Below, piece after piece: positions 53,641-57,215 of a DNA stretch of 57,215 nt. Each line of letters starts with the position of its first letter. The first letter of the stretch is position 1. The notes under the pieces are model-generated. The model was not told the origin of the DNA. It searched no databases and worked only from the letters and a program-made list of their open reading frames with translations. The DNA lies in the NCBI GenBank assembly GCA_021787335.1, contig JAJYMC010000060.1:1-57215 (forward strand), read 5' to 3'. The position numbers were made by a program, and so were the translations under genes. The DNA comes from Bacillota bacterium. Its GTDB lineage: Bacteria > Bacillota > Sulfobacillia > JAJYWN01 > JAJZPE01.

Positions 53641-54252
53641 GTGTCCCGACAGCCTCGCCCAGAGCGCAAGGCGCCAAACGTCGTCGTCATCGGGCTTGTC
53701 TCGATGGTCTTCTTCATCCTCGTCGGCGTGCTTCTGGCCAACATCCTGAGGCACGAGAGCCTCCTTCCCCGCCTCGCCCTCAACGGCGTTGGCGTGGCCC
53801 TTGGGCTAGCCGGGGCCGTCGTCTGCTTCGTCCTGGCGGCCGCGATGTACCTGTCCTGGCCGGCCCTGCGGGCGGTCTCCGACGCCACCGCCGCCAAGGC
53901 CGTGCAGGTCAGTCTGGCCCAGTTCGGCTGGCTCGGGCTCATCTTCAGCGTCACCCTGCCGCCCATCGGCGAGGAGGTATTCTTCCGCGGTGCCCTCCAA
54001 CCGAGCATCGGCCTCGTCCCCGCGGCCCTGCTCTTCGGCCTGTCCCACGGGGGTTGGGGCAAGTCCTCCTGGCCCTACGCCGTCTCGGCGGCCGTCTCCG
54101 GCCTCGTCATCGGATGGGTATTCCAGCAGACCGGGTCGCTGTCCGCGTCGATGATCAGCCATCTGGTCTTCAACATCGGCGTCTCGGCGTGTATGGCCAA
54201 GGGCTGGTGGCCGTTCAAGACCGGGGCCGCCTCGGTCGGGACCGATTCGTGA
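53641..54252 (+). CDS. CPBP family intramembrane metalloprotease
   Basis: 203 aa, about six transmembrane helices. The CPBP/Abi motif 1 EExxxR appears as GEEVFFRGAL, motif 2 as FGLSHGGWG (His ligand), and motif 3 as ISHLVFNIG. CPBP proteins (CaaX protease and bacteriocin-processing) cut or bind substrates in the membrane; the family serves prenyl-protein processing in eukaryotes and bacteriocin immunity in Bacillota. GTG 53641 follows GAGGAGGGA. The next gene starts at or just after its stop. Confidence 0.9.
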   Translation: MSRQPRPERKAPNVVVIGLVSMVFFILVGVLLANILRHESLLPRLALNGVGVALGLAGAVVCFVLAAAMYLSWPALRAVSDATAAKAVQVSLAQFGWLGLIFSVTLPPIGEEVFFRGALQPSIGLVPAALLFGLSHGGWGKSSWPYAVSAAVSGLVIGWVFQQTGSLSASMISHLVFNIGVSACMAKGWWPFKTGAASVGTDS

Positions 54253-54263
54253 GGGATCGGCCC

Positions 54264-54827
54264 GTGAATGTTCGACTTGTGAAGGTCCGGCCCGTCAGCC
54301 GACCCGCTGACACCGCGTCGATCCTCCGATTGGACGACTCCTTCACCACAACACGCGTCTACCGGGTGGCCACGGGTAACCTGTCATTCGACCTCGTCGA
54401 GACAGCGGTAGACCCTCCCCTCCACAAGGACTTCGCCCCCCTTCCCCCCGGGCCCAGGCCCGGTCGCGCCGTGGAGTACGCCGCCGTGGACGGGGTCGAC
54501 GCCCTCATCGGTTACGCTTCAGCCGTCTACGAGGAGTGGAACCGGCGGGTCATCCTGTGGGACCTCTGCGTCGCCTCACGGAGCCGCCGGCAGGGCGCCG
54601 GGCGGGCCCTCATCGACTCGGTCGTCCGGTTCGCGGGCACGGTCGGGGCGCGTCAGGTCCTGGCCGAGACGCAGAACGTCAATTACCCGGCCGTTCAGTT
54701 CTACCTGCGCTGTGGCTTTCGCTTGGCCGGCCTAGACATGGACTATTACGATCCCAAGGGTCCCGGCCGCGGCGAGGTCGCTCTATTTATGGCCCTAGAC
54801 GTCCCGGACACCCTGCTGCCGAAGTGA
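54264..54827 (+). CDS. GNAT family N-acetyltransferase (streptothricin acetyltransferase-like)
   Basis: 187 aa. The central motif VILWDLCVASRSRRQGAGRA has the acetyl-CoA loop R-R-Q-G-A-G, and NYPAVQFYLRCGFRLAGLD is the usual C-terminal motif. The layout with a long N-terminal beta part and EEWNRR before beta4 resembles SatA-type enzymes, but resistance function is only a guess. GTG 54264 with GAGGGAT upstream is used; a GTG at 54249 overlapping the CPBP stop is an alternative. Cotranscribed with the CPBP gene and ended by a strong terminator. Confidence 0.82.
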   Translation: MNVRLVKVRPVSRPADTASILRLDDSFTTTRVYRVATGNLSFDLVETAVDPPLHKDFAPLPPGPRPGRAVEYAAVDGVDALIGYASAVYEEWNRRVILWDLCVASRSRRQGAGRALIDSVVRFAGTVGARQVLAETQNVNYPAVQFYLRCGFRLAGLDMDYYDPKGPGRGEVALFMALDVPDTLLPK

Positions 54828-54854
54828 GGACTAGGCCGAACGCCAGAGAAAGCG

Positions 54855-54886
54855 GAGCCCGGGCGCGCTGCCCGGGCTCTCTTTTT
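54855..54886 (+). terminator. rho-independent terminator
   Basis: Perfect 10-bp stem GAGCCCGGGC (54855-54864) with GCCCGGGCTC (54870-54879), 5-nt loop, then TCTTTTT. Confidence 0.92.
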
Positions 54887-55228
54887 GTTTCATATAAATC
54901 TGGGTGAACCGCTGCCGTGGTCTCTCCGGCCATTCGTTGACCACAATCCCAGGCTGGGTGTCAACAGTGACGACGGGCCATACCGTCGGGGCCAAAGTCG
55001 TGGACCCACATCTCGAGACCCTGATCCTGGATCACCTTTTCGAGGGGCGCGCACGGGTCGGCTTGGTCGCGGGGAGAGAACGGAATGCTCTCCTGGGCAG
55101 CCAGGCGACACGAGGTGAGTGGGCTCCAGGCAGAAGAGGCCCTACCCATCGAGCGGCTATTCGCCAGCATTCTGTTACGGATTTTGTCAGAAAGGGAAGG
55201 CCTGGGTTCCAGGCAGGAGCCTCAGATG
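54887..55228. other. gene-poor stretch, possibly degraded coding sequence
   Basis: No complete gene. Two short segments look protein-like: on the minus strand, before a stop at 54961, APLEKVIQDQGLEMWVHDFG; on the plus strand at about 55140-55240, PIERLFASILLRILSEREG. Neither has a family match I recognise, and neither has a credible start. The stretch lies at the border between GC-rich chromosome and the more A/T-rich HipA-DUF3037 cassette, so remnants of an insertion event are likely. Confidence 0.4.
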
Positions 55229-56092
55229 CTATTGAAGAAGGCCTTCTGGGGCTTGGGGAGGCTGGTCCAGCTGCACAGCAGCCCTCATTCGAGCAGCTAG
55301 GTCGAGGAGGTCGCGCTGTTGGGCTGAATCGACATAGGTACATTTCACGCCCTCTAGGACTCTTCGTGATCGGTCGACTAGATATTGTTTCCCCTCTTTG
55401 GGTGGTTGAACCACCGCACTTATGCTCGACCCTTGGGGAAGGATGGTCCATAGGTCTTCAAAGCGGAAGCCCCAAGCATCAATCTCTTGCTTGATCTCGT
55501 CCTCGTCCCCAGTGTCCAGAGTGAAGCCCTGGATGACGTGCACCTTCGTCTGGCCTTTATAGCCTAGATCGAGGCTTACGACGTCCTCGCTTTTCGAAAG
55601 GCGAACCGGCAGCGGGCTAAAGAACTTCTCTACCCGAACCGTTCGTAGGGCGTTCTTAACTCTAGAGACCACCTGGCTCCGCGTGAACACCGTCTTAAGC
55701 TCGTGAGCCGGCCTAAGGCTTACAAACGACTCGAAGGTGGCTTTGGCATCTTCCGCGAGATCTCGAACAGCTATTGGGCGGAGAGCGCTGACTTGAAGCT
55801 CATGTGCGAGCTCGTTTCTCAGCCGGACGAGATAGTTCGGATCAGAACGCCACTCCGCGTCCAGCCCTGAGCCGATACCACTCTTCAGGTTCTCAAGGGC
55901 GACCTTGAGAAACCCGCGGTCTGCTTCCGCCATTGGCCTCGCCAATTCGAGGGGGTCATCAATGGTCTTGACTATGAGGTCATCGCCGACCCAGATGACG
56001 ACCCCTACATTAACGGGCTCATCCCGCCCGAGGTCGGGTATGAAGCGAATGACTCCGTATTTACCGACTCGCTCAATGGTGCTGGTGCTCAT
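55229..56092 (-). CDS. DUF3037 protein, partner of the HipA-like kinase
   Basis: 287 aa. The N-terminus YGVIRFIPDLGRDEPVNVGV is the DUF3037 signature. The C-terminal half (about 170-280) is an uncharacterised alpha/beta region. Its ATG at 56092 shares one base with the stop of the kinase gene (TAATG), so translation is coupled and stoichiometry fixed. DUF3037 and HipA-like (HipA_2) genes are repeatedly adjacent in bacteria, but no function has been shown that I know of. Composition is clearly richer in A/T than the flanking genes. Confidence 0.85.
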   Translation of the reverse strand: MSTSTIERVGKYGVIRFIPDLGRDEPVNVGVVIWVGDDLIVKTIDDPLELARPMAEADRGFLKVALENLKSGIGSGLDAEWRSDPNYLVRLRNELAHELQVSALRPIAVRDLAEDAKATFESFVSLRPAHELKTVFTRSQVVSRVKNALRTVRVEKFFSPLPVRLSKSEDVVSLDLGYKGQTKVHVIQGFTLDTGDEDEIKQEIDAWGFRFEDLWTILPQGSSISAVVQPPKEGKQYLVDRSRRVLEGVKCTYVDSAQQRDLLDLAARMRAAVQLDQPPQAPEGLLQ

Positions 56093-56994
56093 TAAATCGC
56101 CCCCAGCTTATTGCCGTTTGGTAAGTTCTCATCCGGCCTAACCCATTCCCTGTAATGGTTCCGGTTCGACATGATTATATCCCGAACCATGGCCCTTCGA
56201 AAAGCCAAAAATGAAACCAGGGCATCCGCAGTTTCCTTCTCAAGCCCCCATGATTCGGGGATGTCGCTCACGGCTGAGACCAGATCGGCTGCCGAGTATC
56301 CCTCTATCTTACGCAGTATGCCTTCGAACGGCGCGTAACCCTTTACGTGCCGCGAGAAGTGGTCGTAGATTGGTCCCCACGGATGGTTGGTGCTGACCTT
56401 TCTTTCGTTGAGGTCTTTTGCTGTCCACCCTGGGCCAAAGAACAGGTGGCCGTGGTCGATCATATGGAAAGAGGTTGCTCTGTCCGGGCCGACACAAATC
56501 AGGAAGTTCCCAGGGTTTGCGCACCTATCTTCGTTGCCGGTCCAAAGGTCAAAAGCAATGCAGTCAGCCAAGGGGAACCCGGTGTCGGCTTTCTGTTGAA
56601 GGTAACTCTGGGCTACGACGCTGTCCATGGACCGCCCAAGGGCTTTCGAGCCAAACTGTACTCCGGTGGCAGGCGGTTGGCCATTGATGGTTATCTTCTC
56701 CGCGGTGCCATCCTCAGGATCCCAGAATCCTGCCGGGACGTCTACCAAGTCGCATTCAGGGACGGGCAGCCCGAGCCCCCGCGCGAGTCGATAGCCAACC
56801 AATTCTGCCACTAATGCCGTGGGGCCTGTCTGGTTGTTGGTAAACTTCACGTAATACTCATTGCCATCACGGCACTTTAGCACTAAGCTCTCGGACACCC
56901 CAACCTTACTCTTCCTTGCGAACTCAAATGCAGCAACTATCCTGGTTTCCCTCCCCCCTTTGAGCCACCCGCGGTCAGGGGCCCATAATAACAA
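56092..56994 (-). CDS. HipA-like kinase (HipA_2 type)
   Basis: 300 aa. Kinase features: Lys in YYVKFTNNQTG (ATP strand), catalytic Asp156 in GNEDRCANPGN (HRD-like with the downstream Asn) and Asp180 in MIDHGHLFF (DFG-like). ELVGYRLARGLGLPVPE is the usual helix and strand after the Lys. These shorter HipA-like proteins lack the N-terminal domain of HipA toxins, whose known targets are glutamyl- and tryptophanyl-tRNA synthetases. The first gene of the pair. The start is uncertain: TTG 56994 is used; GGGGGGAGGG lies downstream of it, in front of RIVAAFEF, where no standard start codon exists. Confidence 0.85.
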   Translation of the reverse strand: MLLWAPDRGWLKGGRETRIVAAFEFARKSKVGVSESLVLKCRDGNEYYVKFTNNQTGPTALVAELVGYRLARGLGLPVPECDLVDVPAGFWDPEDGTAEKITINGQPPATGVQFGSKALGRSMDSVVAQSYLQQKADTGFPLADCIAFDLWTGNEDRCANPGNFLICVGPDRATSFHMIDHGHLFFGPGWTAKDLNERKVSTNHPWGPIYDHFSRHVKGYAPFEGILRKIEGYSAADLVSAVSDIPESWGLEKETADALVSFLAFRRAMVRDIIMSNRNHYREWVRPDENLPNGNKLGAI

Positions 56995-57215
56995 CCGTAG
57001 AAAAGGGAGACCGCCTGTTTCTTTTCTTTGGGCTGCCTCCCTTGCTACGTCTTTGCTGAATTACGAACTGGATGAAGTTGCAGACCTGTTGATTATCCGC
57101 CTTGGTGAGCGGCACCTTGGTCCGCAGGAAGACCCCGCGTTCCTAGAGCACCCGATCCAACTCTGCCTCCTGTGGGTCAGCAGCCTTGGTTGGGGGGCCG
57201 GGGGGGGGGCCGGGG
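56975..57215 (-). pseudogene. partial ORF at the right edge with an in-frame TAG
   Basis: Reading inward from the edge on the minus strand, PTKAADPQEAELDRVL is followed by TAG (plus 57143-57145) and then, in the same frame, ERGVFLRTKVPLTKADNQQ, continuing with CNFIQFVIQQRR. Both sides look like real protein. The end to 56975 is low complexity and overlaps the start of the HipA-like gene. No family recognised. Beyond the ORF the window ends in a G-run (about 57194-57215), which may be a poor-quality or repetitive stretch. Could be a decayed gene of the same cassette. Confidence 0.35.
56997..57051 (-). repeat. second copy of the GCCTCCCTTGCTACGTC hairpin element
   Basis: The 19-bp sequence CTGCCTCCCTTGCTACGTC at 57033-57051 is identical to 26302-26320. 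Here too the arm pairs with an upstream partner: GTAG-AA-AAGGGAG (56997-57009) with CTCCCTT-G-CTAC. The internal loop differs. On the minus strand it ends CTCCCTTTTCTAC, a weak terminator or leader hairpin in front of the HipA-like gene. Confidence 0.6.

What the first reader, a model, noticed from the sequence alone, without database searches (positions are those of the whole stretch)
55229..56994. HipA-like kinase and DUF3037 translationally coupled pair in an A/T-richer cassette
The kinase has all catalytic residues (Lys, D156, D180) but lacks the HipA N-terminal domain. The partner starts on the stop codon of the kinase (TAATG). Recurrent pairing, foreign-looking composition and flanking debris suggest a mobile two-gene system, possibly a toxin-antitoxin or phage-defence unit with an unknown target.
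Basis: partly seen in the sequence, partly recalled or inferred. Interest (0 to 1): 0.62.

Follow-up and report, generated by a model that had tools for sequence, protein, structure and literature searches.

The report
HipA kinase–DUF3037 toxin-antitoxin defence cassette
This is a horizontally acquired two-gene cassette, a HipA-like kinase toxin and its DUF3037 partner, and it belongs to an anti-phage toxin-antitoxin family already shown to work in E. coli, so it is a real but distant new member of a known kind.

Summary
A HipA_2 kinase (56994..56092, minus) and a DUF3037 protein (56092..55229, minus) overlap at TAATG, at 55-56% GC in a 65.8% GC window. They are a divergent pair of the family PADLOC calls PDC-M66. 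Published members are DS-6/HipAD and the HipA-DUF3037 module of Retron-Sda1, where kinase loss abolishes phage defence and DUF3037 deletion is toxic. Mobility is supported by an empty site: in the same-genus and same-family genomes the CAAX protease gene runs straight into etfA-etfB. Here the cassette follows CAAX, an acetyltransferase gene and a terminator, and the etfA orthologue (92%) starts another contig. DUF3037 is rare in the class (3 of 154 genomes), always beside a HipA_2 kinase; in viral contigs 78 of 81 DUF3037 genes are. In prophages the pair often follows the CI-type repressor, the rexAB position of lambda. Most likely it is a toxin-antitoxin abortive-infection module; target and trigger are unknown. 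New here: a predicted nuclease-like (PD-(D/E)XK) C-terminal fold in DUF3037 without the catalytic triad, and a likely ATA start for the kinase.

The parts
56092..56994 (-). HipA_2-family Ser/Thr kinase, predicted toxin/effector; TTG start as listed, more likely ATA at 56940
   Evidence: ORF; PF20613 64.2 bits; PDC-M66A E 4e-13; NxDR and DHG motifs; start analysis
55229..56092 (-). DUF3037 protein, predicted antitoxin: N-terminal DUF3037 domain (residues 12-123) plus C-terminal alpha/beta domain (about 133-279)
   Evidence: PF11236 25.1 bits; PDC-M66B E 2.4e-6; AF2 model; full-length profile match to phage-borne DUF3037, prob 97%, E 3e-11
56090..56094 (-). TAATG stop/start overlap, translational coupling
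   Evidence: sequence; relatives also have overlapping ends
56938..56960 (-). SD-like GGGGGGAGGG followed 8 nt later by in-frame ATA (56940-56938), probable kinase start
54854..54880 (+). native intrinsic terminator shared with the empty site of relatives; left limit of the insertion
54889..55228 (.). left foreign flank without recognisable genes; terminator-like stem 55214-55200 after DUF3037
   Evidence: no Pfam match; no match at the site in relatives
56995..57215 (.). right foreign flank up to the contig end (G-rich tail)
53641..54252 (+). CAAX protease gene, conserved left neighbour of the insertion site
   Evidence: PF02517; synteny

Best explanation
A two-gene toxin-antitoxin-type anti-phage cassette of the HipA_2-DUF3037 family (PDC-M66; DS-6/HipAD). 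The kinase is the toxin: when freed it phosphorylates a Ser/Thr of an unknown host or phage protein and stops growth, aborting infection. DUF3037, translated from the kinase stop codon in a coupled ratio, binds the kinase and keeps it silent until infection. Its N-terminal DUF3037 domain and its C-terminal nuclease-like but catalytically incomplete domain would share the inhibitor and the sensor (or nucleic-acid-binding) roles; which does which is not known. The cassette entered this genome by horizontal transfer between the CAAX-protease/acetyltransferase genes and etfA. Shown here: homology, intact motifs, coupling, pairing, empty site. Shown elsewhere for relatives: kinase-dependent defence, toxicity when DUF3037 is removed. 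Inferred: kinase substrate, trigger, activity in this host.
For: Family models. Published genetics of relatives: kinase deletion abolishes defence and DUF3037 deletion is toxic (PMC12548924); a catalytic mutant loses defence (PMC13092281). Catalytic residues conserved; the profile also finds the structure 4kqa (C. elegans H03A11.1) through the same NxDR/DHG motifs. Pairing 3/3 in the class, 78/81 in viral contigs. Full-length homology of this DUF3037 to the phage-borne ones. Sporadic distribution, GC/GC3 shift and empty site. Prophage copies lie next to the CI repressor (36 of 73 loci against 26 of 282 control ORFs; annotated E. coli example). Small 3.5-4.7 kb plasmids also carry the pair.
Against: Sequence divergence is high: kinase at most 31% identical to any relative found, DUF3037 about 15-24%. 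The nearest kinases by sequence are orphan HipA_2 genes of Bacillota without DUF3037, whose function is unknown. No experiment on this pair. The cassette is at a contig end, so a third gene upstream of the kinase cannot be excluded. The kinase start codon is uncertain.
Confidence: 0.77

Rival explanations
1. The pair is a plain addiction (stabilisation) module that rides on mobile DNA, with no real anti-phage role in this host.
For: Toxic kinase plus antitoxin is also what an addiction module looks like; relatives sit on 3.5-4.7 kb plasmids.
Against: Defence by relatives is shown against phages, and prophage copies sit in the immunity region beside CI.
Confidence: 0.12
2. The kinase is a regulatory or modifying protein kinase, as the orphan HipA_2 genes of Bacillota may be, and DUF3037 is its dedicated substrate or adaptor in a housekeeping pathway.
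For: Closest kinases are orphans next to unrelated genes; 21 of 24 HipA_2-bearing genomes of the class lack DUF3037.
Against: Absent from the same-genus and same-family genomes; foreign composition; DUF3037 deletion is toxic in a relative.
Confidence: 0.07
3. The cassette is a decaying or inactive remnant: the kinase has lost a normal start codon (ATA where a start is expected) and lies in gene-free debris at a contig end, possibly an assembly chimera. It would coexist with the family assignment above.
For: SD-like sequence is followed by ATA; flanks without recognisable genes; both contigs end in G-rich runs.
Against: Both frames are intact over about 590 codons with all family motifs; ATA and TTG are permitted starts in table 11.
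Confidence: 0.12

Closest known systems
DS-6 / HipAD (E. coli; DefensePredictor, PMC13092281)
   Same: HipA-related kinase plus DUF3037 partner; kinase activity needed for defence
   Different: DS-6B is reported with DUF3037 and DUF1829; no DUF1829 match was found in this protein. Sequence similarity to DS-6 itself was not measured
PDC-M66 (PADLOC) and the HipA-DUF3037 module of Retron-Sda1 (PMC12548924)
   Same: Both genes match PDC-M66A/B models; same gene content
   Different: No retron reverse transcriptase in the visible flanks; model matches are partial (B: residues 11-42 as best stretch)
Prophage HipA_2-DUF3037 pairs of enterobacteria (e.g. L025, L158)
   Same: Same two genes, same order, overlapping coding regions
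   Different: Those sit in prophages, often by the CI repressor; the window pair sits in a chromosomal intergenic site with no phage genes seen
HipBA and HipBST
   Same: Kinase core of the HipA superfamily; toxin held by a partner protein
   Different: No HipA N-terminal domain, no HipB seen; the DUF3037 domain did not match HipS in the PDB fold search, which is inconclusive

Membership tests
HipA_2-DUF3037 defence pair (PDC-M66; DS-6/HipAD) | HipA_2 kinase with intact Lys, catalytic Asp (NxDR) and metal Asp (DHG) | tested here: met
HipA_2-DUF3037 defence pair (PDC-M66; DS-6/HipAD) | DUF3037 gene directly downstream, same strand, overlapping or adjacent | tested here: met
   TAATG overlap
HipA_2-DUF3037 defence pair (PDC-M66; DS-6/HipAD) | matches PADLOC PDC-M66A and PDC-M66B | tested here: met
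   E 4.1e-13 and 2.4e-6; the B match is short
HipA_2-DUF3037 defence pair (PDC-M66; DS-6/HipAD) | DUF1829 domain in the partner (reported for DS-6B only) | tested here: inconclusive
   no Pfam match, no profile match to three DUF1829 proteins; thin profiles
HipA_2-DUF3037 defence pair (PDC-M66; DS-6/HipAD) | kinase-dependent anti-phage activity; DUF3037 neutralises the kinase | not testable with these tools
   shown for relatives only
HipBA | HipA N-terminal domain (Couple_hipA) in the kinase | tested here: not met
HipBST | HipS-like antitoxin (HipA N-subdomain 1 fold) | tested here: inconclusive
   element order of the DUF3037 N-domain resembles the published description of HipS, but no HipA/HipS row in the fold search
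HipBA / HipBST | HipB-type HTH regulator gene in the operon | tested here: inconclusive
   none in the visible cassette, but the contig ends about 220-275 bp upstream of the kinase
PD-(D/E)XK nucleases (C-terminal domain of DUF3037) | catalytic D ... E-x-K triad | tested here: not met
   by inspection of alignment and model: D175 at the second strand, VIQ where E-x-K is expected; fold similarity Z about 10

The most novel reading that the evidence does not exclude
DUF3037 antitoxins of this family are two-domain sensors whose C-terminal half is a dead PD-(D/E)XK nuclease that recognises phage nucleic acid and thereby releases the kinase; the N-terminal DUF3037 domain would be the kinase inhibitor, with no clear relative among solved structures.
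Probability: 0.2. Interest if true: 0.55.

Novelty: new member of a known kind. Interest (0 to 1): 0.32.

Why it matters
It extends an experimentally supported kinase-based phage-defence family, described in E. coli and in an environmental retron host, to a deep high-GC Bacillota lineage, with a clean empty site that points to recent gain. The prophage copies beside the CI repressor, the position of lambda rexAB, point to superinfection exclusion as a common role. The nuclease-like fold of the antitoxin gives a testable idea for how infection is sensed, which is open for this family.

Tried and rejected
HipS idea: the element order of the DUF3037 N-domain (strands, helices 47-94, strands 99-109) resembles the published description of HipS, but the PDB fold search of that domain found nothing above Z 3.5 and no HipA/HipS chain; not supported, not excluded. 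DUF1829 in the C-terminal domain: not found by Pfam or hhalign. Close relatives of the exact window proteins in viral contigs, plasmids and phages: none close. The first alignment was too diverse for a genome-contig scan; a closer one returned mostly orphan HipA_2 kinases. Debris flanks: no Pfam family; the 3.6-kb stretch carrying the cassette has no second copy in the genome. Inverted repeats at the cassette ends: only weak arms (19 nt, 74%), not taken as transposon ends.

Full report
What is there. On the minus strand of the window, at the end of its 57,215-base contig (C56 of G000, 3.55 Mb in 65 contigs), two genes lie head to tail: a kinase (56994..56092) and a DUF3037 protein (56092..55229), sharing one base in TAATG. 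Pfam calls the first HipA_2 (PF20613, 64.2 bits) and the second DUF3037 (PF11236, 25.1 bits, just above the cut-off of 22.6). PADLOC matches the pair to PDC-M66A (E 4e-13) and PDC-M66B (E 2e-6). The kinase keeps the nearly invariant Lys of the ATP site, the Asp of NxDR and the Asp of DHG. A profile of the family also finds the structure 4kqa (C. elegans H03A11.1, a Fam20-type kinase from general knowledge) through the same two motifs. There is no HipA N-terminal domain in the protein and none elsewhere in the genome.

Start of the kinase. The listed TTG (56994) has no good ribosome-binding site. An SD-like GGGGGGAGGG lies 8 bases before an in-frame ATA at 56940, near where several relatives start. 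ATA is a rare start; either it is used, or TTG is, or the start has been damaged. This is open.

Foreign origin. The two genes are 55-56% GC with GC3 0.62-0.64, against 66-68% and 0.82-0.90 for the three genes to the left. The same-genus genome G001 and the same-family genome G002 have the CAAX protease gene followed, after a terminator-like stem, by etfA-etfB (named from their sequences) and no cassette. In G000 the CAAX gene is followed by a GNAT acetyltransferase gene and a similar terminator (54854-54880), and then by unrelated sequence with the cassette. The orthologue of G001's etfA (92% identical) sits at the very start of contig C10 in the expected orientation. Both contig ends carry G-rich runs, which may be why the assembly broke there. 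The join is inferred, not seen. The GNAT gene has no close copy in G001, G002 or G003, so it may be a separate gain. HipA_2 is absent from G001, G002 and G003. DUF3037 occurs in 3 of 154 genomes of the class, from three families, each time beside a HipA_2 kinase. One of these lies near a TnpB-like gene (by sequence) in G461, and a same-phylum pair lies among genes that look like polymorphic toxins in G365.

Recurrent pairing. A scan of viral contigs with phage-borne DUF3037 gave 79 loci. Of 81 DUF3037 hits in them, 78 lie directly behind a HipA_2 kinase, nearly all with overlapping ends; of the three exceptions, one has the kinase about 1.4 kb away, one is broken and one has no kinase found. 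From the kinase side, pairing is not the rule: 21 of the 24 HipA_2-bearing genomes in the class have no DUF3037, and a tree of 59 kinases needs at least three changes of partner state even on well-supported branches (one Bacteroidota row, L036, was scored as unpaired although a weak DUF3037-like gene follows it). The window kinase is deep in that tree; its highest identity is 31% to orphan kinases of same-phylum genomes, and it groups weakly with the kinase of small Klebsiella plasmids. This DUF3037 protein and its nearest relatives match the phage-borne ones along nearly the whole length in a profile comparison (probability 97%, E 3e-11).

Context in other hosts. The pair is on 3.5-4.7 kb plasmids of Klebsiella, in a phage-like region of a Pantoea plasmid, in a Klebsiella phage genome and in 286 of 5,426 complete E. 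coli genomes, always on the chromosome. In the E. coli example it lies between the S24-type repressor and the gam-bet-exo genes of a lambdoid prophage. In 36 of 73 viral loci with enough upstream sequence a CI-like repressor lies just upstream, against 26 of 282 other long ORFs in the same loci; the count is probably a lower bound because only two repressors were used as queries. In lambda this is the place of rexAB, known for excluding other phages (general knowledge).

What is known. In Retron-Sda1, deletion of the HipA kinase abolished defence against Bas51, deletion of DUF3037 was toxic, and the retron parts were not needed (PMC12548924). DS-6, renamed HipAD, was validated in E. coli; a catalytic mutant lost defence and AlphaFold3 predicted a kinase-partner complex (PMC13092281). 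The kind of system is therefore known. The window pair is a distant member. Its phylum is Bacillota by the names of same-phylum records (contig G135:C45 of 36,007 bases); the class was not named by any tool.

Structure of the partner. An AlphaFold2 model of this DUF3037 protein (pLDDT 75.7, pTM 0.53, 23 sequences) has two domains. The C-terminal one (about 133-279) resembles PD-(D/E)XK nucleases: Cdn1, VC1899, BstEII, Can2 and BsoBI at Z 9.6-10.1, rmsd 3.1-3.9, 125-135 residues aligned (Foldseek E about 1e-3 to 1e-2). This is above the usual background of 7-8 but not proof. The catalytic triad is incomplete: D175 is in place, E-x-K is VIQ (by inspection). The N-terminal domain modelled alone (pLDDT 75.9) has no clear PDB match (best Z 3.5).

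Mechanism, with what is shown. Most likely the kinase is a growth-stopping toxin and DUF3037 its inhibitor and sensor. The coupling and gene order would keep the inhibitor in step with the toxin. Kinase need and antitoxin role are shown in relatives. Target, trigger and activity in this host are inferred or unknown.

Verdict. The system is a distant new member of a known, experimentally supported kind. The added value is the empty-site evidence, the immunity-region position in prophages, and the nuclease-like fold of the partner.

Noticed in passing
L158 5192-7577; viral loci L056-L134: Prophage HipA_2-DUF3037 pairs often sit directly downstream of the CI/S24 repressor, the rexAB position of lambda, which suggests superinfection exclusion.
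   Followed up: partly
window 55256-55696: The C-terminal half of DUF3037 is predicted to have a PD-(D/E)XK nuclease-like fold without the catalytic triad.
   Followed up: partly
window 56938-56960: SD-like GGGGGGAGGG ahead of an in-frame ATA: possible ATA start of the kinase or a lost start codon.
   Followed up: partly
window 57190-57215 and L152 1-90: Contigs C56 and C10 both end in G-rich runs where synteny says they should join; looks like an assembly artefact of poly-G.
   Followed up: partly
L004, L009, L040-L055: A large clade of HipA_2 kinases, mostly from one family of the same class, has no DUF3037 partner; function unknown.
   Followed up: no
L010, L011: Orphan HipA_2 kinases of Syntrophomonadaceae lie just behind a gene for a PHP-like metal-dependent hydrolase (by sequence).
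   Followed up: no
L141 2663-3034: The CAAX protease gene of the same-genus genome is cut short at its 3' end (about 124 of 203 residues match).
   Followed up: no
window 54237-54827: The GNAT gene between CAAX and the terminator is absent at this site in G001 and G002, so it may be an earlier separate gain.
   Followed up: partly
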